The notes under the pieces were generated by a model. It saw only the letters and a program-made list of their open reading frames with translations, had not been told where the DNA came from and searched no databases. The position numbers and the translations under genes were made by a program. From assembly GCF_003115775.1 (NCBI RefSeq), contig NZ_QEES01000002.1, positions 1,984,001 to 2,048,000 of the forward strand: 64,000 nucleotides of DNA, read 5' to 3'. This document shows, in pieces, positions 34,703-41,635 of the stretch (position 1 is the first letter of the stretch; every line of letters begins with the position of its first letter). This DNA is from Cellulomonas sp. WB94. Its GTDB lineage: Bacteria > Actinomycetota > Actinomycetes > Actinomycetales > Cellulomonadaceae.

Positions 34703-35218
34703 ATGACCGCATCCCGGCCCCGTGCCCGGGTCGGCGTGCCCACGCGGCGCGCGGGCCTGGTCGTCGCGTCGGTCGCCGCGATCGCGGTCCTTGGTTCGCT
34801 GGCTCTGCCCGGTCGGATCGCCCTCCATCAGTGCGTGAGCGCCGACGGCGCACTCGGCCCGCTCGGGCTGCGACTGGCCCTGCTGCGCAGCGCCGCCGAC
34901 TGCCCTGACGGCACCGTCGCGTTCACCCCGCTCGCGCGGGGTGGCGTCGTCGTGCTGCTCAGCGTCGCGGTGCCGGTCCTGCTGTTCCACCTGGCCCTCG
35001 GCGCCGGCGGTCTCGGGATCGGTGCCGTGCTGGTCCGCGCCCTGCGGTCTGCCGCCCGGGTCCTCGCTGCTGCGCTGCCGAGGGTCCCGCGCGCCGCGGT
35101 GGCCGTCGTCGGGCAGGTCACGCGGTTCGTCGTCACCGTCGAGGTGCGCTCCCTGCGCACGATCGCTGCCGTCCTGGCCGCCCACCCGCACCGCGGCCCG
35201 CCCGTCCTGCCCGCCTGA
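34703..35218 (+). CDS. Small membrane protein of unknown function
   Basis: 171 aa. Two predicted helices (VASVAAIAVLGSLALPG near residue 20 and GGVVVLLSVAVPVLLFHLALG near residue 85) enclose an extracytoplasmic loop with two Cys (ALHQCVSADG, SAADCPDG) that could form a disulfide; the Arg-rich tail is cytoplasmic. No family recognised. TACCCT at 34691-34696 is 6 nt before the ATG, giving a leaderless start. The DsbA-like gene follows 46 bp later, and the paired Cys make a functional link conceivable. Confidence 0.75.
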   Translation: MTASRPRARVGVPTRRAGLVVASVAAIAVLGSLALPGRIALHQCVSADGALGPLGLRLALLRSAADCPDGTVAFTPLARGGVVVLLSVAVPVLLFHLALGAGGLGIGAVLVRALRSAARVLAAALPRVPRAAVAVVGQVTRFVVTVEVRSLRTIAAVLAAHPHRGPPVLPA

Positions 35219-35264
35219 ACGCCCGCTCCACCTCCACCCCGAAATTTCAGACGGAAGCAGAACC

Positions 35265-36119
35265 ATGCCCAGCAACGATCCACGTCCCAGCAAGGCCGAG
35301 CGTCGCGACGAGGCCCGGGTCAAGGCCATCCAGATGCGCGAGCAGCAGAAGCAGCGCGAGAAGCGCAACCGGATCATCGCGATCAGCGGGCTCGTCGCCG
35401 CAGTCGTGGTGCTCGTCGTCGTCGTCGCGCTCATCCTGGGCCAGACGAAGGGCACCACCGCCGGCGCTGCCGCGTACACGGGCGACGCCGTCAAGCTCGC
35501 CGACGTCGCCAAGCCCTCGACCGCCTCCGACAGCGGTGCCATCCCGGTCGGCGCCACCGGCACGGCGGGCGAGAAGGCGGCCACCGGCGACGTCGTCGTC
35601 TCGGTCTACCTCGACTACATGTGCCCGTACTGCCACCAGTTCGAGACCGCCAACGACGCCGAGCTCGCCACGCTGCGGGCCGCGGGCGGCGTGGTCGTCG
35701 AGTACCACCCGATCTCGATCCTCGACCGGCTGTCGTCGGGCACCGAGTACTCGACCCGGGCGTCGAACGCCGCCGCCGTCGTCGCCGACCAGGCGCCCGA
35801 CAAGTTCACGGCCTTCAACTCCGCGCTGTTCGCCAACCAGCCGGCCGAGAACTCGAAGGGCCTGTCCGACGATGAGATCGCGAAGCTCGCGCTGACCGCC
35901 GGTGTGCCCCAGACGGTCGTCGACCAGTTCACGACGAACGTCCCCGACAAGGCCTGGCGCACGTTCGCCCCGTACGTCTCGGCGCTGACGGCTCAGGCCA
36001 GCGTGGACCTGGGCGACTCCTACGGGACGCCGACCGTCCTGATCAACGGCACCGCGTTCAAGGGCGACCTGTACTCGGCCGGTCCGCTCACCGAGGCGAT
36101 CGTCGCCGCGAAGGGCTGA
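35265..36119 (+). CDS. Membrane-anchored DsbA/thioredoxin-like thiol oxidoreductase
   Basis: 284 aa. A charged cytoplasmic stretch (residues 1-35) leads to one helix (36-59, IIAISGLVAAVVVLVVVVALIL). Outside is a DsbA-type thioredoxin fold with the active site C-P-Y-C (Cys120-Cys123) in YLDYMCPYCHQFE and the cis-Pro loop SYGTPTVLING. This is the BdbD/DsbA form typical of actinobacteria, which makes disulfides in exported proteins. Start ATG 35265. A strong hairpin terminator follows. Confidence 0.94.
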   Translation: MPSNDPRPSKAERRDEARVKAIQMREQQKQREKRNRIIAISGLVAAVVVLVVVVALILGQTKGTTAGAAAYTGDAVKLADVAKPSTASDSGAIPVGATGTAGEKAATGDVVVSVYLDYMCPYCHQFETANDAELATLRAAGGVVVEYHPISILDRLSSGTEYSTRASNAAAVVADQAPDKFTAFNSALFANQPAENSKGLSDDEIAKLALTAGVPQTVVDQFTTNVPDKAWRTFAPYVSALTAQASVDLGDSYGTPTVLINGTAFKGDLYSAGPLTEAIVAAKG

Positions 36120-36303: not shown

Positions 36304-36630
36304 TTACTCGGCGATGCGCTCCGTCAGCGCTCGCCACAGGACGGTGCCCTCGATCCAGTCCTGGGCGGATGCGCCCTCGATCCGGTCCGCGGCCACGTCG
36401 AGCTCGGCGGCGAGCGTCGCGGCGAGTCCGTCCGTGCGGGCCGCGGCAGCCGCGGCGCGGTAGAAGCCGACCCGCTCGGCCGCGTACGTGGCGGCGAACC
36501 GCTCGAGCATGCCGCGCGCTCCCAGGGCGGCACCGGGCGTGAGGTCCTCGACGGCGATCTCCCGGCCCTTGATGTCCCGCCACACCCGCCCGTCGAAGCC
36601 CCAGGGCGCCGGACGCATCACGAAGGTCAT
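36304..36630 (-). CDS. Small hypothetical protein coupled to a response regulator
   Basis: 108 aa. Starts MTFVMRPAPWGF; WRDIKGREIAVEDLTPG then an Ala-rich helical region (ARGMLERFAATYAAERVGFYRAA). No membrane segment or known motif. Its ATG overlaps the stop of the response regulator gene (ATGA), so the two are made together; it may modulate that regulator. It converges on tRNA-Thr, 6 bp away. Confidence 0.65.
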   Translation of the reverse strand: MTFVMRPAPWGFDGRVWRDIKGREIAVEDLTPGAALGARGMLERFAATYAAERVGFYRAAAAAARTDGLAATLAAELDVAADRIEGASAQDWIEGTVLWRALTERIAE

Positions 36631-37295
36631 GACCGGCCGGTCTCCTCGAGCAGACGCAGCGCGGCGCTGACGCGGGGGTTGCGGGTCGGATCGGTGTCGA
36701 TCTCGAGCGTGCCGTAGATCGCGTTGATGTGGTTCTGCACGGACTTCTCGGTGATCCCGAGAGCCTCGCCGATGCCCGCGTTCGAGCGGCCCTGCGCGAG
36801 GAGCCGCAGCACCGCGTACTGCCGGTCGGTGAGCCGGGCGACGGCGGTCCCCGCGCGCGGCTTCTTGCGGTCGATGAGGGCCGAGTCGAGCGTCGTCTTG
36901 CCGGCCGCCGAGGCGCGCACCGCGGCCACGAGCGTGTCGGTGCTGGTCGAGGACGTCTTGGACAGGTAGCTCCAGCCGTTGCGCACGTCCGGCGGCAGGT
37001 CGAGCAGGAGGTCCATGGAGTCCTGCGCGGACAGCAGGAGGATGCCCAGCCCGGGCTGCTTGCGCCGCAGGATCACACCGAGGGCGATGCCGTTGCCGTC
37101 GGGAAGGTCGATGTCGAGGATCGCGACGTCGACGGCCCCGGGCGTCATGCGCTGCTCGGCCTCGCGGGCCGTGCCGACCGCCGCCACGACCTTGATGCCC
37201 TCCACGTTCGCGAGCGTGAACTCGAGCATCGAACGGAAGAGAGGCTGGTCCTCGACGATGCCGAGCCGGATGGGGTCGTGCGCCTGCGTAGTCAT
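36627..37295 (-). CDS. NarL/FixJ-family response regulator
   Basis: 222 aa. Receiver domain (residues 9-130) with acidic pair Glu15-Asp16 and phospho-acceptor Asp61 in AILDIDLPDG; Lys in YLSKTSS. LuxR-type helix-turn-helix from about residue 152: LTDRQYAVLRLLAQGRSNAGI then GITEKSVQNHINAIY. It is divergent from the histidine kinase gene that follows, its expected partner; that kinase is frameshifted here. ATG 37295. Confidence 0.92.
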   Translation of the reverse strand: MTTQAHDPIRLGIVEDQPLFRSMLEFTLANVEGIKVVAAVGTAREAEQRMTPGAVDVAILDIDLPDGNGIALGVILRRKQPGLGILLLSAQDSMDLLLDLPPDVRNGWSYLSKTSSTSTDTLVAAVRASAAGKTTLDSALIDRKKPRAGTAVARLTDRQYAVLRLLAQGRSNAGIGEALGITEKSVQNHINAIYGTLEIDTDPTRNPRVSAALRLLEETGRS

Positions 37296-37372: not shown

Positions 37373-38526
37373 ATGCCTGCCCCGAGGACAGCCGAGCAGT
37401 CAGCCCAGCGCGACGACCTCAGGGCGCTCCTGGCCGCGACGGGCGGCGTCCTCGGTCTGCTCGCGGTGGGTGCGGCGCTCCTCGTGTCCGCGGCGTACAA
37501 GTACGCCCCCGCGGGCGTGGGCGGCGGGTCGTTCGGCGGTCGTCTCGCAGCGAACACGATCTGCGTCCTGGTCATGCTCGCCGCCCTGCGCTGGAGCAGG
37601 GTCGCGACCACCCACAGCTTCTGGGAGATGGTCTACGGGATCGCGGTCGCCTCGATGTATGCGGCGACCGCGCGCGTCATGGCCCAGTCCGCGTTCCACG
37701 TCTACGACGTGACGATCAGGACGACCCAGCTCGTCGAGCTGTCGGCCGGCCTCATCGCGGCGGTCGCGGGCGGGATGGCGGGGGCGGCGGCCATGGTGTC
37801 GCAGCGGCGGCTCCGCAAGGGCATCGAGGCGGGAGCCGCGGCAAAGGTTCGGATCGAGCTCGCGCTGCGGGCCCTGGAGGACGAGGAGGTCCGGGTCCGC
37901 CGCGAGGTCGCCGAGGGCCTGCACGGCAGCCTCCAGCAGAGGCTCGTGCTCATCGTGGCGCGGCTCGACCGCGCGATCGAGTCGTTCGACTCGGGGTTCG
38001 GCACCGACGCCGACGTGCTCGCGCTGCGTGAGGTGCGCGAGCAGATCGAGGACGTGCGGGAGGGCGACGTGCGCGAGACCAGCCGCATGCTCTACCCGGA
38101 GAGCCTCGAGATCGGCATGGTGCCGGCGGTGCGGTCGCTGCTCGCGCGGATGCCCCCGACATCGCGACGCGCATGGTGGTGTCCGACGACGTGCGCAGCC
38201 TCGACGACCCGGTCTCGCCGCAGCTGACCCAGAGCGAGCGGCTGCTCGCGGTCCGGGTCGTCGAGGAGGCGGTGACCAACGCGCTGCGCCACGGCGGCGC
38301 GCACTCGCTGCGCGTGGCGATCGATCTCGACGTGGACTGCCTCGCCGTCGCGGTGGTCGACGACGGGTCGGGATTCGATGCGCCGACCGTCGGCCCACGC
38401 TCCGGGACGAAGCGCCTCCAGGAGCGACTGGTGCTCATCGGCGGACGGCTGAATGTCTCATCTGTCCCGGGTGAGGGGACGCGCGTGGAGGCGCGCGTCC
38501 CGATCTCGACCATGTACGACGCCTGA
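37373..38526 (+). pseudogene. Histidine kinase (NarL-partner, HisKA_3 type), split by a one-base frameshift
   Basis: The first frame (37373 to 38227) encodes four or so membrane helices and the HisKA_3 dimerisation domain with phospho-acceptor His184 in AEGLHGSLQQRL. It should continue into HATPase_c, but that domain (EAVTNALRHGGAHSLRV, VVDDGSGFD, GGRLNVSSVPGEGTRVEA) is in another frame, ending at 38526. The frames join at a run of five C (38153-38157): one added C gives a smooth LLARMPPDIATRMVVSDD. The product would be about 385 aa. It is a real inactivation, a sequencing error in the homopolymer, or phase-variable slippage. ATG 37373 is the likely start; 37313 is an alternative. Confidence 0.85.
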
Positions 38527-38855: not shown

Positions 38856-39272
38856 ATGTCGAAGTCCACGAACCGTCGCAAGTCCATCGCCATCGCGCTC
38901 GCCGTCCTCGGCGTCGCCGGTCTGTCGCTTGCGTCCGCCGCGCAGCTGAACCTGACCGGGAGCAACACGGTCCAGTCCGGCACCCTCGCCCTGACCGCGG
39001 ACTGCCAGACGACGACCATCCCGGTGACGTTCTCGGCTCCGGCACGCACGGGCGCAACCTTCGGGTCGGACACGGTCACCCTCAGCAAGATCGACGCCGC
39101 ATGCGCGGACGGCAAGCACAAGTACAAGGTCGCGCTTCTCGGCGACCTCAACGCAGTCATTCTTGATGGCGTGGAGACCTCGCTTGCCTCGGGTGCGACG
39201 TCGATCTCGATCCCGCTCTCGGCCGGCCAGGACAACGCCATCAAGACCGTCGCGCTCACGATCTACAGCTGA
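38856..39272 (+). CDS. Small exported protein, likely SipW-type signal peptidase substrate (1)
   Basis: 138 aa. Signal peptide: NRRKS, a hydrophobic core (IAIALAVLGVAGLSLAS) and probable cleavage at ASA-AQL near residue 28. The mature part (about 110 aa) is Thr/Ser/Val-rich with two Cys (TADCQTTT, DAACADGK). Its module VTLSKIDAACADGKHKYKVAL is shared with the two other exported proteins of the cluster. It resembles the small surface proteins that accompany SipW-like peptidases (TasA/camelysin-type cassettes) in Gram-positives; no known name. ATG 38856 has GGGAGC upstream. The peptidase gene follows 43 bp later. Confidence 0.8.
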   Translation: MSKSTNRRKSIAIALAVLGVAGLSLASAAQLNLTGSNTVQSGTLALTADCQTTTIPVTFSAPARTGATFGSDTVTLSKIDAACADGKHKYKVALLGDLNAVILDGVETSLASGATSISIPLSAGQDNAIKTVALTIYS

Positions 39273-39315
39273 ACCGCGCTCACGGACTGACTGAGGTCGG
39301 ATCATCGAGCGACGC

Positions 39316-39999
39316 ATGCACCTTCGAGCCGGCGCGGCCACCCCGCGCCGGCTCGTTGGCATCGTCGCGTCCGTCCTGCTGTACACCCTCGCGGGGGTCG
39401 CGGCCTTCCTCCTCTGGCCGACGAGCCTCGGCGGCTGCACGACCCTGACGATCGTCTCGGGCCACTCGATGGAGCCGACGTACTACACCGGCGACCTGGT
39501 CGTCGCGCGGTGCGCCACGGCGGTGGTGGGCGACGTGATCGTCTACCAGCCCAAGGAGCTCGGCGGCGCGCGCATCATCCACCGCATCACGGGTGGCGAC
39601 GCGACGACCGGCTGGGTCATGCAGGGCGACAACAACGCCGCTGCGGACCCGTTCAACCCTGCCGGCTCCGAGGTCCTCGGGGTCGCCAAGGTCTACCTGC
39701 CGAAGGTCGGCCTGGTCGCCCGCGGCCTGACCAGCCCGTTCGTCTGGGTCTCCTTCATCCTGATCGCGATCGGCCTGTTTGTCTGGCCTCGCCAAGAGGA
39801 GAGCGACGACGACGCGTCGACCGCCGACCAGGCGACGGCGGGCTCGGTGCTCGACGCGGTCGGCACCGACCTCAGCGCAGACGCGCTGAGCCCCTCTCAG
39901 ACTGAGCCCGCGCGCGACGAGGGTGCCGCCACCGTGCCGTCCTGGGTCCCGGACTCCGTGCCCGACTCGGTCCACGCGCCCGTGATGGAGCCCCGATGA
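39316..39999 (+). CDS. SipW-like signal peptidase I (Ser-His type)
   Basis: 227 aa. S26B (ER/archaeal-type) signal peptidase. An N-terminal helix (LVGIVASVLLYTLAGVAAFLLW), then the catalytic Ser51 in VSGHSMEPTYYTGD and His89 in GARIIHRITGG in place of the usual Lys; box E is MQGDNNAAADP. A second helix near residue 140 (PFVWVSFILIAIGLFVW) precedes an acidic tail. B. subtilis SipW, which has this Ser-His arrangement, processes TasA and TapA. It sits between two genes for small exported proteins and overlaps the second (ATGA), so they are its expected substrates. Confidence 0.9.
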   Translation: MHLRAGAATPRRLVGIVASVLLYTLAGVAAFLLWPTSLGGCTTLTIVSGHSMEPTYYTGDLVVARCATAVVGDVIVYQPKELGGARIIHRITGGDATTGWVMQGDNNAAADPFNPAGSEVLGVAKVYLPKVGLVARGLTSPFVWVSFILIAIGLFVWPRQEESDDDASTADQATAGSVLDAVGTDLSADALSPSQTEPARDEGAATVPSWVPDSVPDSVHAPVMEPR

Positions 40000-40823
40000 A
40001 GCGGGCCCTGGGCGCCTGCGCGCTGATCCTCGCGGTGGCGTTGTCCTTCATGACTCCGGCCAGTGCCGCGAAGCTGGTCATGACCGGCGGTCAGCACCCC
40101 TCGGCGTTCTCCAGCGCGCGCTGCGACGACGCCGTGGCGGCGACGACGCCGGCCACGACGACCACCACCAACGTCATGCAGCTGTCCGGCATCGCCGTGG
40201 CGTGCGCTGGCCTGCCGATCGCCGTTCAGCTGTACGACTCGGCAACCACGGCGACCCTCACCGGCGCCGCGACGGTGCCTGCGGCGGGAGGCTCGGTCCA
40301 GCTTGCGCTGTCCGGGCCCTACACCCCTGCTGCCACGGCCGTGATCTCCGTGACGATTGCGTCGTGGCCCATCCCCACAACGTGGAGCTATACCGCGGCG
40401 GCGGTGGCGCCCGGCTGCGTCGTGCTCAACGGTGGTGGCAACACCAACAACGGCAAGTCGTGCTCGTTGACGTTCGGTGGCAACACGGACACCTCCGGAA
40501 CCTCGTGGAAGCTCAAGATCACGGTGTCGACCACTGAGAAGAACCCGGTGACCTGGCAGGCGACGGTGAACTTCGCAGACCTCGCCAGATTCCCCTTCCT
40601 GGCGCGATACGTCGGGGAGTCCTCCGGTGGCGCGACCTTCGCACCTCTGCCGAGCGGCTTCTGCTCGAGCAGCACGCGCCTCGTGACGTTCACCGGTGTG
40701 GCGAGCAGCGGTACTGCGACCGTGGTCGGGGCCGATGGCGCGCAGGTCGCAGTCACTCAGACGATCGAATTCGTGGGGAACAACACCGGGCAGATCACCA
40801 ACCCGGTCTACATCTGCCCCTGA
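39996..40823 (+). CDS. Exported protein, likely SipW-type signal peptidase substrate (2)
   Basis: 275 aa. Signal peptide MKRALGACALILAVALSF with probable cleavage ASA-AKL near residue 24. The mature protein is Thr/Ser/Gly-rich with at least five Cys and few charged residues, as in secreted beta-rich surface proteins. The first half carries the shared module (MQLSGIAVACAGLPIAVQLYD); the second (from about residue 130, CVVLNGGGNTNNGKSC) is unlike its neighbours, with a further Cys pair (GFCSSS, VYICP). Start ATG 39996 overlaps the peptidase stop. A terminator hairpin follows. Confidence 0.78.
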   Translation: MKRALGACALILAVALSFMTPASAAKLVMTGGQHPSAFSSARCDDAVAATTPATTTTTNVMQLSGIAVACAGLPIAVQLYDSATTATLTGAATVPAAGGSVQLALSGPYTPAATAVISVTIASWPIPTTWSYTAAAVAPGCVVLNGGGNTNNGKSCSLTFGGNTDTSGTSWKLKITVSTTEKNPVTWQATVNFADLARFPFLARYVGESSGGATFAPLPSGFCSSSTRLVTFTGVASSGTATVVGADGAQVAVTQTIEFVGNNTGQITNPVYICP

Positions 40824-41236
40824 CTCGTCGGTCCGGGCGACCTGCTCGCCCGGCGTCCTCAAAGTCCCGGTCGACCTCGCGCCCGTGCAGACACGCGACG
40901 CGCGCCTGACTCTGGGCGCGTTCTGACGGGTCCCGTGACCAACTCTCATCGATCTTGGCTCGGGTGGGTGTTTTCCCCCTATTGCCGCCAAAGTCATCCC
41001 CTTCGTCGCGCCTATCCCGTATCCGGCGTCGGCTCCGACGGCTCGAGCGGCCTGTCTCTGCGCCCGTCGCCCACCCCCGAAAAGCGTGGGAGCGCAGCCT
41101 CTCCGGCGACTTCGCCCATGTGTCCGGCCGTGGGGCTTTATTTCATCCAGCGTGACCTGACTCACTGGTGGCTTGGGTGTTTCCACCTACGTATGGTCGT
41201 GAGCAAGGGAACGACTTGCGGTGAAGGAGGTGCGCG
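40824..41236. other. Intergenic region with terminator and two similar promoter-like elements
   Basis: 413 bp. After the terminator hairpin I see no convincing gene; a 101-codon frame has poor composition and no ribosome site. Two related elements, GGGTGTTTTCCCCCTATTG (40966-40984) and GGGTGTTTCCACCTACGTA (from 41175), share GGGTGTTT and CCTA, 209 bp apart. Confidence 0.55.
40833..40853 (+). terminator. Terminator hairpin after the SipW-like operon
   Basis: CCGGGCGA (40833-40840) and TCGCCCGG (40846-40853) around CCTGC, 10 nt after the stop. Confidence 0.65.
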
Positions 41237-41635
41237 ATGAGCACAGCGACAAGCTCGAAGCGGCGGAGCAACCGACGCTGGTGGGCCAGCGCCTTCCTCG
41301 CCGTCGCGGCCGCTGGTGCCTTCGCCTCGTCGAGTGCCGCGCAGGCAGGCGAGCTGTCGTCCGCCTCCGCGTGCCCGGCCTCCCAGATCTCGGTGAGCTA
41401 CGAGGTCGGTATCGACTCGACCCTGGGCGCGTACGCCGTCACCGGGATCCGGGTCACCGGCTACCCGACCCAGTGCGCGGGTCAGCGCGTCGCAGTGACG
41501 GTGCACGACGCCGCTGGCGCGGCACTCGGCACCGCGACCGGCGAGCTGAGGACCGACTCGGTGCTCGCGATGACGGCGACCACGCCCGTCGACGCCGCGC
41601 AGGCCGACCGGCTCACGATCGCCCCCGCCGTCTGA
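41237..41635 (+). CDS. Small exported protein, likely SipW-type signal peptidase substrate (3)
   Basis: 132 aa. Signal peptide with basic N-region (SSKRRSNRRWW) and core ASAFLAVAAAGAFASSSA, cleaved near SSA-AQA at about residue 35. The mature part has two Cys (SACPASQ and PTQCAGQ) and the module AVTGIRVTG..QCAGQRVAVTVHD shared with the two other exported proteins. It has the strongest ribosome site in the window (AAGGAGGT, 5 nt before the ATG), so high expression is likely. It is separated from the operon by a terminator and 413 bp and must have its own promoter. Confidence 0.75.
   Translation: MSTATSSKRRSNRRWWASAFLAVAAAGAFASSSAAQAGELSSASACPASQISVSYEVGIDSTLGAYAVTGIRVTGYPTQCAGQRVAVTVHDAAGAALGTATGELRTDSVLAMTATTPVDAAQADRLTIAPAV

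What the first reader, a model, noticed from the sequence alone, without database searches (positions are those of the whole stretch)
38856..41635. SipW-like peptidase with three exported proteins sharing a new-looking module
A Ser51-His89 signal peptidase lies between, and overlaps, genes for small exported proteins; a third lies downstream with a near-perfect ribosome site. All three substrates have a Cys after the signal peptide and then a shared pattern: I followed by 3-8 residues, Cys-Ala-(Gly/Asp), and a V-x-L/V-x-D/G strand (SKIDAACADGKHKYKVAL, SGIAVACAGLPIAVQLYD, TQCAGQRVAVTVHD). This resembles TasA/TapA/SipW fibre cassettes but with different substrates. A surface fibre or coat is plausible (inference).
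Basis: partly seen in the sequence, partly recalled or inferred. Interest (0 to 1): 0.75.

Follow-up and report, generated by a model that had tools for sequence, protein, structure and literature searches.

The report
Dedicated peptidase with hypervariable surface subunits
A soil actinobacterium carries a conserved mini-operon in which a dedicated signal-cutting enzyme sits between the genes of related exported proteins that look like building blocks of a surface fibre, and these building blocks change far faster than the genes around them.

Summary
A SipW-type Ser-His signal peptidase (Sip) lies between paralogous small exported proteins A and B; C follows. A, B and C share one uncatalogued module (mature-only profile comparisons 95.6-98.5% probability; shuffled controls at most 0.52%). 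They match no Pfam or NCBIfam family and not the TasA/CalY family. The link to the peptidase is strong: A lies directly upstream of 68 of 68 Sip genes called at named loci, and 33 of 34 genomes with an A match in the order and class samples have Sip in the locus. These Sips fall on one side of a single tree branch. Five genomes fuse Sip to B. The mature N-terminus (A/S-Q-L-N-L/V) is highly conserved but left without structure at low confidence in the model of A, as expected for a donor strand. A and B diverge faster than their flanks in 21 of 21 close pairs. Best reading: Sip-dependent assembly of a variable, disulfide-stabilised surface fibre or coat, working like TapA-SipW-TasA with unrelated subunits. 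Polymerisation is inferred, not shown.

The parts
38856..39272 (+). A: exported module protein, 138 aa, proposed main subunit
   Evidence: ORF and coding score; directly upstream of 68 of 68 Sip genes called; no Pfam/NCBIfam family
38856..38939 (+). A signal peptide, 28 aa, ending A-S-A (placed by eye)
   Evidence: sequence; aligned family start
38940..38954 (+). AQLNL: conserved mature N-terminus of A, proposed donor strand
   Evidence: one of the two most conserved five-residue windows of mature A, 3.21 against a mean of 2.09; residues 1-14 without strands and at low confidence in the model
39003..39005 (+). A Cys50, first Cys of the module pair
   Evidence: two mature Cys in 64 of 68 A proteins
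39102..39104 (+). A Cys83, second Cys of the module pair
39316..39999 (+). Sip: SipW-type (TIGR02228) signal peptidase, 227 aa
   Evidence: TIGR02228 above cut-off; peptidase branch specific to module loci
39466..39468 (+). Sip Ser51, nucleophile
   Evidence: invariant in 25 aligned peptidases
39580..39582 (+). Sip His89, general base position
   Evidence: invariant in 25 aligned peptidases
39996..39999 (+). ATGA overlap of Sip stop and B start
   Evidence: sequence; same -4 spacing in 37 of 66 Sip-downstream gene pairs
39996..40823 (+). B: exported two-domain protein, 275 aa, proposed tip, anchor or starter subunit
   Evidence: module protein directly downstream of 66 of 68 Sip genes; one of the other two is a Sip-B fusion
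40068..40364 (+). B N-terminal module, homologous to A and C
   Evidence: hhalign 97.8% and 95.6%
40377..40820 (+). B second beta domain; of another type in some relatives (ricin-B lectin in 2 of 38 aligned B proteins)
   Evidence: model strands 104-249; Pfam
41237..41635 (+). C: exported module protein, 132 aa, accessory subunit
   Evidence: hhalign with A 98.5%; found in 34 of 66 named loci
36627..37295 (-). LuxR-type response regulator, candidate regulator
   Evidence: Pfam Response_reg and GerE
37373..38227 (+). histidine kinase, N-terminal part; frame lost before the ATPase domain
   Evidence: kinase homologue directly upstream of A at 43 of 68 Sip genes; HATPase_c only in another frame, 38173-38523
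35265..36119 (+). DsbA-like thioredoxin, possible disulfide former (may be synteny only)
   Evidence: PF13462 and PF01323; homologue found in 58 of 120 fetched loci, some contigs fetched twice

Best explanation
The cassette makes a secreted, disulfide-stabilised surface fibre or coat. A (many copies) and B (few copies, with a variable second domain) go through Sec. The dedicated SipW-type peptidase between them cuts both just before a conserved short N-terminal strand (A/S-x-L-x-L/V). That strand is not used by the subunit's own module and, once freed, can complete the sheet of the next subunit (donor-strand assembly, as in TasA/TapA). B, translated in overlap with or fused to Sip, is made beside the peptidase and serves as starter, tip or anchor; its second domain, a lectin in some relatives, is the variable contact surface. 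C is an accessory subunit. Shown by sequence: shared module, peptidase branch tied to it, gene order, fusion, conserved Cys pairs, conserved N-terminus, rapid A/B turnover. Inferred: cleavage by Sip, disulfide formation, donor-strand exchange, fibre formation, surface display, and which subunit is major.
For: Module homology with controls. A upstream of Sip 68/68, module downstream 66/68. Genomes with an A match that have Sip in the locus: order sample 24/24; class sample 9/10 besides the own genome. Class sample of TIGR02228 matches: 29 of 48 came as new loci and were examined; 4 have the module within 1.5 kb, and these 4 have the 4 best Sip-subfamily scores. Tree: module Sips on one side of a branch, 92/83 support, 1 change against a shuffled mean of 19.8. 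Sip-B fusions in L138, L205, L207, L208, L209: C-terminal part matches the B profile at E 7e-38 to 3e-23. Conserved N-terminus without structure in the A model. Two mature Cys in 64/68 A and 35/35 C; six in 51/56 B. Sortase-like tails on the downstream module protein in L211 and L213, and on a gene near Sip in L285. Ricin-B lectin domain in 2 of 38 B. A and B below flank identity in 21/21 locus-disjoint pairs. TasA/TapA precedent: PMC9674648 and PMC10151520, passages.
Against: No experiment; no complex could be predicted (two structure jobs, monomers only). Foldseek finds no significant PDB match: best for A is Cj0090, E 9e-3, TM 0.44; none at E <= 0.001 for A or B. Low confidence at a chain end is common and is not proof of a donor strand; the C-terminal strand of A (VALTI) is just as conserved, and in B the N-terminus is only the seventh best window. 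The cleavage sites look like ordinary A-x-A sites with Gln or Lys at P2', so the housekeeping peptidase might also cut them (inference). G435 has a module gene with no Sip in 10 kb, and G567 a second module gene without Sip in 13 kb; C occurs without Sip in G038. In L104, L114 and L115 second copies of A lack both Cys. I saw no clear N-terminal motif in C.
Confidence: 0.5

Rival explanations
1. Dedicated export of non-polymerising surface adhesins or lectins: Sip matures a set of Ig-like monomers that stick to the wall or to polysaccharide; no fibre forms.
For: B second domains vary and include ricin-B lectins; sortase-like tails in some cassettes would anchor single proteins; fast change of A and B fits surface exposure without polymers.
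Against: Does not explain the conserved N-terminus directly after the cut that the A model leaves without structure, the special peptidase, or the constant A-Sip-B layout.
Confidence: 0.27
2. A, B and C are highly diverged true members of the TasA/CalY family.
For: Same gene logic; the same genome has two SipW-type loci with PF12389 proteins; all-beta models.
Against: No PF12389 or TIGR04088 match for the window's A, B or C; none in 27 A scanned with NCBIfam or 66 A and 38 B scanned with Pfam. Profile comparison with 11 TasA-like proteins gives 0.10%, 0.13% and 0.24% for mature A, B and C; full-length A gives 24% over only 14 columns (an earlier run, held one misframed row, gave 2.4%, and its 12 columns lay in the signal peptide). 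A, B and C find each other at over 95%.
Confidence: 0.08
3. Secreted antagonism or signalling cassette: A and B are diffusible antimicrobial or recognition proteins under diversifying selection, Sip their maturation enzyme.
For: Hypervariable between relatives; replacement that includes Sip in L106/L119 and L116/L126.
Against: Pfam shows no toxin domain in the window's A, B or C (neighbours elsewhere were not scanned systematically); the module scaffold and N-terminus are conserved; wall-anchor-like tails in relatives.
Confidence: 0.08
4. Chance neighbourhood: a general peptidase beside unrelated secreted genes.
For: The neighbourhood of DsbA-like gene, regulators, cassette, GDSL and UDG is itself syntenic in the family.
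Against: The A-Sip link persists in other families and orders and beside other genes, with fusions and a matching peptidase branch.
Confidence: 0.02

Closest known systems
tapA-sipW-tasA operon of Bacillus subtilis (donor-strand fibre; PMC9674648 and PMC10151520, passages read)
   Same: SipW-type peptidase encoded between its exported beta-rich substrates; overlapping stop/start of a substrate gene and the peptidase gene; mature N-termini of two subunits resemble each other; minor subunit TapA with disulfides and an Ig fold.
   Different: Subunits not homologous by sequence; here all subunits share one module with a Cys pair; B carries a variable second domain; Sip-B fusions; two-component genes beside it; hypervariable between relatives.
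CalY/camelysin (PF12389) with SipW, Bacillus cereus (PMC13082335: abstract and outline seen)
   Same: Peptidase-linked fibre proteins; two loci of this kind exist elsewhere in this same genome.
   Different: A, B and C do not match PF12389.
Sortase-assembled pili of actinobacteria (recalled)
   Same: Ig-like exported subunits; two relatives of this cassette carry L-x-x-T-G tails on a module protein.
   Different: No sortase motif in A, B or C of the window (A ends LTIYS, B YICP, C APAV). I did not search for a sortase gene.
Cj0090 of Campylobacter jejuni (PDB 4gio)
   Same: Best Foldseek match of A (probability 0.98, TM 0.44).
   Different: E-value 9e-3 and 16% identity, not significant; different setting.

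Membership tests
SipW/archaeal-type signal peptidase I (TIGR02228) | profile score above the curated cut-off | tested here: met
   52.5 against 51.85 bits; 53.3 in the genome search
SipW/archaeal-type signal peptidase I (TIGR02228) | Ser-His pair (His where bacterial SPase I has Lys; recalled) | tested here: met
   S51 and H89 invariant in 25; HR in 68 of 68, GxSM in 65 of 68, the other 3 being gene calls that start after the Ser
Bacillus SipW equivalog (NF046067) | score above cut-off 190 | tested here: not met
   25.1 bits
TasA/CalY family (PF12389) | profile match | tested here: not met
   none for A, B, C, for 66 A or 38 B; hhalign of mature profiles 0.10-0.24%, full-length A 24% over 14 columns
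SipW-cognate signal class (TIGR04088) | profile match of the N-terminal region | tested here: not met
   none for A, B, C or 27 A; L102's TasA-like protein gives a sub-cut-off hit
TasA-like donor-strand fibre (works like) | conserved mature N-terminal strand not used in the subunit's own fold | tested here: inconclusive
   conserved; without strands and at low confidence in the A and B models; no complex modelled
TasA-like donor-strand fibre (works like) | filaments formed | not testable with these tools
   needs microscopy or biochemistry
tapA-sipW-tasA type operon | dedicated peptidase gene co-located with its substrates across species | tested here: met
   68/68 upstream, 66/68 downstream; that they are its substrates is inferred
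Sortase pilus | LPxTG-type sorting signal on subunits | tested here: not met
   absent from window A, B, C (sequence); among module proteins of the scanned loci only in L211 and L213

The most novel reading that the evidence does not exclude
A second, independent family of Gram-positive donor-strand fibres, spread over several families of actinobacteria, built from Ig-like modules with a disulfide and unrelated to TasA, with a co-evolved peptidase that can be fused to its starter subunit, and kept as an exchangeable, hypervariable surface cassette.
Probability: 0.35. Interest if true: 0.82.

Novelty: new variant of a known kind. Interest (0 to 1): 0.63.

Why it matters
SipW-type peptidases were found in 34 of 98 sampled class members, and what they are for outside Bacillus seems little studied: judged from listings, my literature searches found no paper on these substrates. 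Here is a whole peptidase branch with its own uncatalogued subunit family. If it makes fibres, donor-strand assembly would work with unrelated subunits behind the same type of peptidase, and Cellulomonas and kin would have a variable surface structure that could govern adhesion to plant polymers, phage contact or kin recognition. The Sip-B fusions make peptidase-substrate coupling directly testable.

Tried and rejected
Lipoprotein reading of the Cys: rejected, it lies well past the cut. TasA/CalY membership: rejected. Chance similarity of the module: rejected by reversed and column-shuffled controls. Reading the DsbA-like gene as part of the cassette: left open; it is present in G038, which has C but no A-Sip-B (L098), and no homologue was found at the five Arthrobacter loci, so it may be synteny. 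PDB searches by sequence: nothing significant. Foldseek on the PDB and viral libraries: nothing significant. Plasmid search with Sip: no match. Promoter scan: none found; one terminator-like site at 41115-41134, no more than shuffles give. Module tree: A, B and C separate roughly (5 changes, the least possible is 2), but with 104 columns and badly cut C rows it is weak.

Weak points of my counts: gene calls come from my own codon-usage caller, trained on this window; for the low-GC loci plain ORFs were used. B-type neighbours in the divergence test may not always be orthologous. The 66 named loci were fetched with Sip peptide patterns, so they favour the near subfamily. In the careful tree I dropped two gappy rows (L268, L270) and relabelled L278 as module after finding a weak module-like neighbour (E 3.6e-5); the quick tree with all 75 rows and the old label needed 2 changes. 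In the first TasA comparison one of 12 rows was misframed; repeated without it. A genome-wide search with PF12389 lists no match in the own genome at E <= 0.001, whereas the direct scan of the two proteins passes the gathering score; I rely on the latter.
Full report
What is there. The window lies in a high-GC actinobacterium (72.5% G+C); its nearest named match by the peptidase is Cellulomonas sp. KJC.2, a metagenome-assembled genome (76% identity). Four + strand genes follow one another: A (38856-39272), Sip (39316-39999), B (39996-40823) and C (41237-41635). Upstream are a histidine kinase and a divergent LuxR-type response regulator, downstream a GDSL hydrolase on the other strand. Sip is a SipW-type peptidase by TIGR02228. 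The genome has five matches to that family, three over the cut-off. The other two over the cut-off sit beside TasA/CalY-like proteins (PF12389 above the gathering score by direct scan; the genome-wide search at E <= 0.001 did not list them). So one genome holds two ordinary SipW loci and this different one.

The shared module. A, B and C hit no Pfam or NCBIfam family beyond chance; neither do 27 A homologues (NCBIfam) or 66 A homologues (Pfam; one weak unrelated hit). Profiles of mature sequences only, signal peptides cut away, find each other at 98.5% (A-C), 97.8% (A-B) and 95.6% (C-B) over 86-101 columns with both cysteines in register. Forty column shuffles and a reversal per pair never passed 0.52%. 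Eleven TasA-like proteins from relatives and this genome, aligned the same way, give 0.10% with mature A, 0.24% with mature C and 0.13% with mature B; full-length A gives 24% over 14 columns. The cysteine pair is kept: two mature cysteines in 64 of 68 A and 35 of 35 C, six in 51 of 56 B. Three of the four A without cysteines belong to second cassette copies, the fourth is a truncated call.

Link to the peptidase. In the family sample of 101 genomes, A matches in 23, B in 18 and C in 23. Gene calling around them shows Sip in the locus in 22 of 23 for A and 17 of 18 for B, the exception (G022) being a contig edge. For C it is 19 of 23, with two contig edges and two without Sip, G038 and the weak match G064. 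In the order sample (297 genomes) 24 have an A match and all 24 have Sip beside it. In the class sample (296) 11 match including the own genome; 9 of the other 10 have Sip in the locus and G435 has not; one of the nine, G567, also has a second module gene without Sip. From the peptidase side, 66 named loci were fetched. Of 68 Sip genes called there, 68 have A directly upstream and 66 a module protein directly downstream; the other two are a locus end (L129) and a Sip-B fusion (L138). In two loci, L158 and L159, the contig ends at Sip and no Sip gene was called. The Sip-downstream gene spacing is -4 in 37 of 66. Five genomes encode Sip and B as one frame: L138 (Actinotalea solisilvae), L205, L207, L208 and L209; their C-terminal parts match the B profile at E 7e-38 to 3e-23.

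Is it any SipW, or a special one? A class sample of 98 genomes gave 48 matches to TIGR02228 in 34 genomes, of which 29 came as new loci. Of these 29, 4 have the module within 1.5 kb, and these four have the best scores to the cassette Sip profile (E at most 2e-25; the others 4e-20 or worse). In a 73-row tree the module-associated peptidases form one side of one branch (support 92/83; 1 change against a shuffled mean of 19.8; row choices are told under Tried and rejected). Many cassette Sips share a Cys pair (59 of 68 at named loci) that the two paralogues in this genome lack.

Structure. AlphaFold2 with 66 family sequences gives mature A at pLDDT 84.4, pTM 0.74: an all-beta domain with the first 14 residues without strands and at low confidence. 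B (38 sequences) gives pLDDT 83.1, pTM 0.61: a similar strand order in its first 100 residues, then a second beta domain. Placing the strands by hand on the profile alignment, A 45-49, 61-67, 73-75, 88-92 and 103-109 fall on B 34-42, 50-56, 63-69, 75-85 and 92-97. The unstructured start of A holds one of its two most conserved five-residue windows, AQLNL (3.21; the other is the last strand, VALTI, 3.22; mean 2.09), directly after the predicted cut; B keeps A-x-L-x-L/V there (2.73, seventh best window; mean 1.84). In TasA the donor strand is residues 28-38 near the mature N-terminus, and TapA's N-terminus resembles it (PMC9674648, passages). TapA is an Ig-like, disulfide-bearing protein whose gene overlaps sipW (PMC10151520, passages). 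That parallel is the ground for the mechanism; it is inference. Foldseek found no significant solved relative.

What the other subunits suggest. B's second domain varies. In L143 and L151 it is a ricin-type lectin (2 of 38 scanned). In L211 and L213 the module protein after Sip ends in a sortase-like tail. In three small genomes of 46-48% G+C, collagen-repeat proteins with a weak module-like end stand near Sip (E 8e-5 to 7e-6 for the module). These fit a modular surface structure with exchangeable tips, stalks and anchors.

Fast turnover. Against the sibling L103 nine neighbours are 81-96% identical and C 93%, but Sip is 78%, A 57% and B 38%. A's signal peptide is nearly unchanged (77 of 84 nt) and synonymous distances are raised too (Sip 0.45, A 0.49, B 1.2; neighbours and C 0.18-0.41), which points to replacement by recombination as well as selection. 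Across 21 locus-disjoint pairs with flank identity of at least 75%, A and B are below the flank median in 21 of 21. Sip's catalytic core mostly keeps pace, but in L106/L119 and L116/L126 (flanks 95% and 93%) it falls to 63% and 67%, as if the whole A-Sip-B unit had been swapped. A and Sip identities correlate after removing the flank effect (partial Spearman 0.63, 203 non-independent pairs).

Verdict. A real, widespread cassette with a peptidase branch of its own and an uncatalogued subunit family; it works like TapA-SipW-TasA in layout and probably in principle, but is not a member of the TasA family. Fibre formation is the best explanation (0.5), non-polymerising adhesins the main rival (0.27). 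I found no published account: searches, judged from titles and starts of abstracts, showed no paper on these proteins; most subscription papers are not held.

Noticed in passing
37373-38526: The histidine kinase loses its frame before the ATPase domain (HATPase_c hit only in another frame, 38173-38523); sibling L103 has one 384-aa frame. Sequencing error or a broken gene; not mended.
   Followed up: partly
L101 6043-7245 and L102 6247-7708 (same genome): Two further SipW-type peptidases, each beside a TasA/CalY-like (PF12389) protein, so three SipW-type loci in one genome.
   Followed up: partly
G091:C204:7142-7483 (in L103/L076, between B and C): A B-like stretch with one stop inside, apparently a remnant second B copy; possibly raw material for cassette change.
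   Followed up: no
L205, L207, L208, L209, L138: Signal peptidase and B substrate fused into one 458-488 aa frame in at least two lineages.
   Followed up: partly
L240, L241, L243: Collagen-repeat proteins with a weak module-like end near a SipW-type peptidase in 1.4-1.5 Mb genomes.
   Followed up: partly
L104, L114, L115 (second cassettes): Second cassette copies whose A has no cysteines.
   Followed up: no
L106/L119 and L116/L126: Close relatives with 93-95% flanks but very different A-Sip-B, as if the unit were swapped by recombination.
   Followed up: partly
34703-36119; L200 3374-4670: A DsbA-like gene lies near the cassette in 58 of 120 fetched loci, with a MauE/DoxX-type gene beside it in L200; possibly the disulfide machinery, possibly synteny.
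   Followed up: partly
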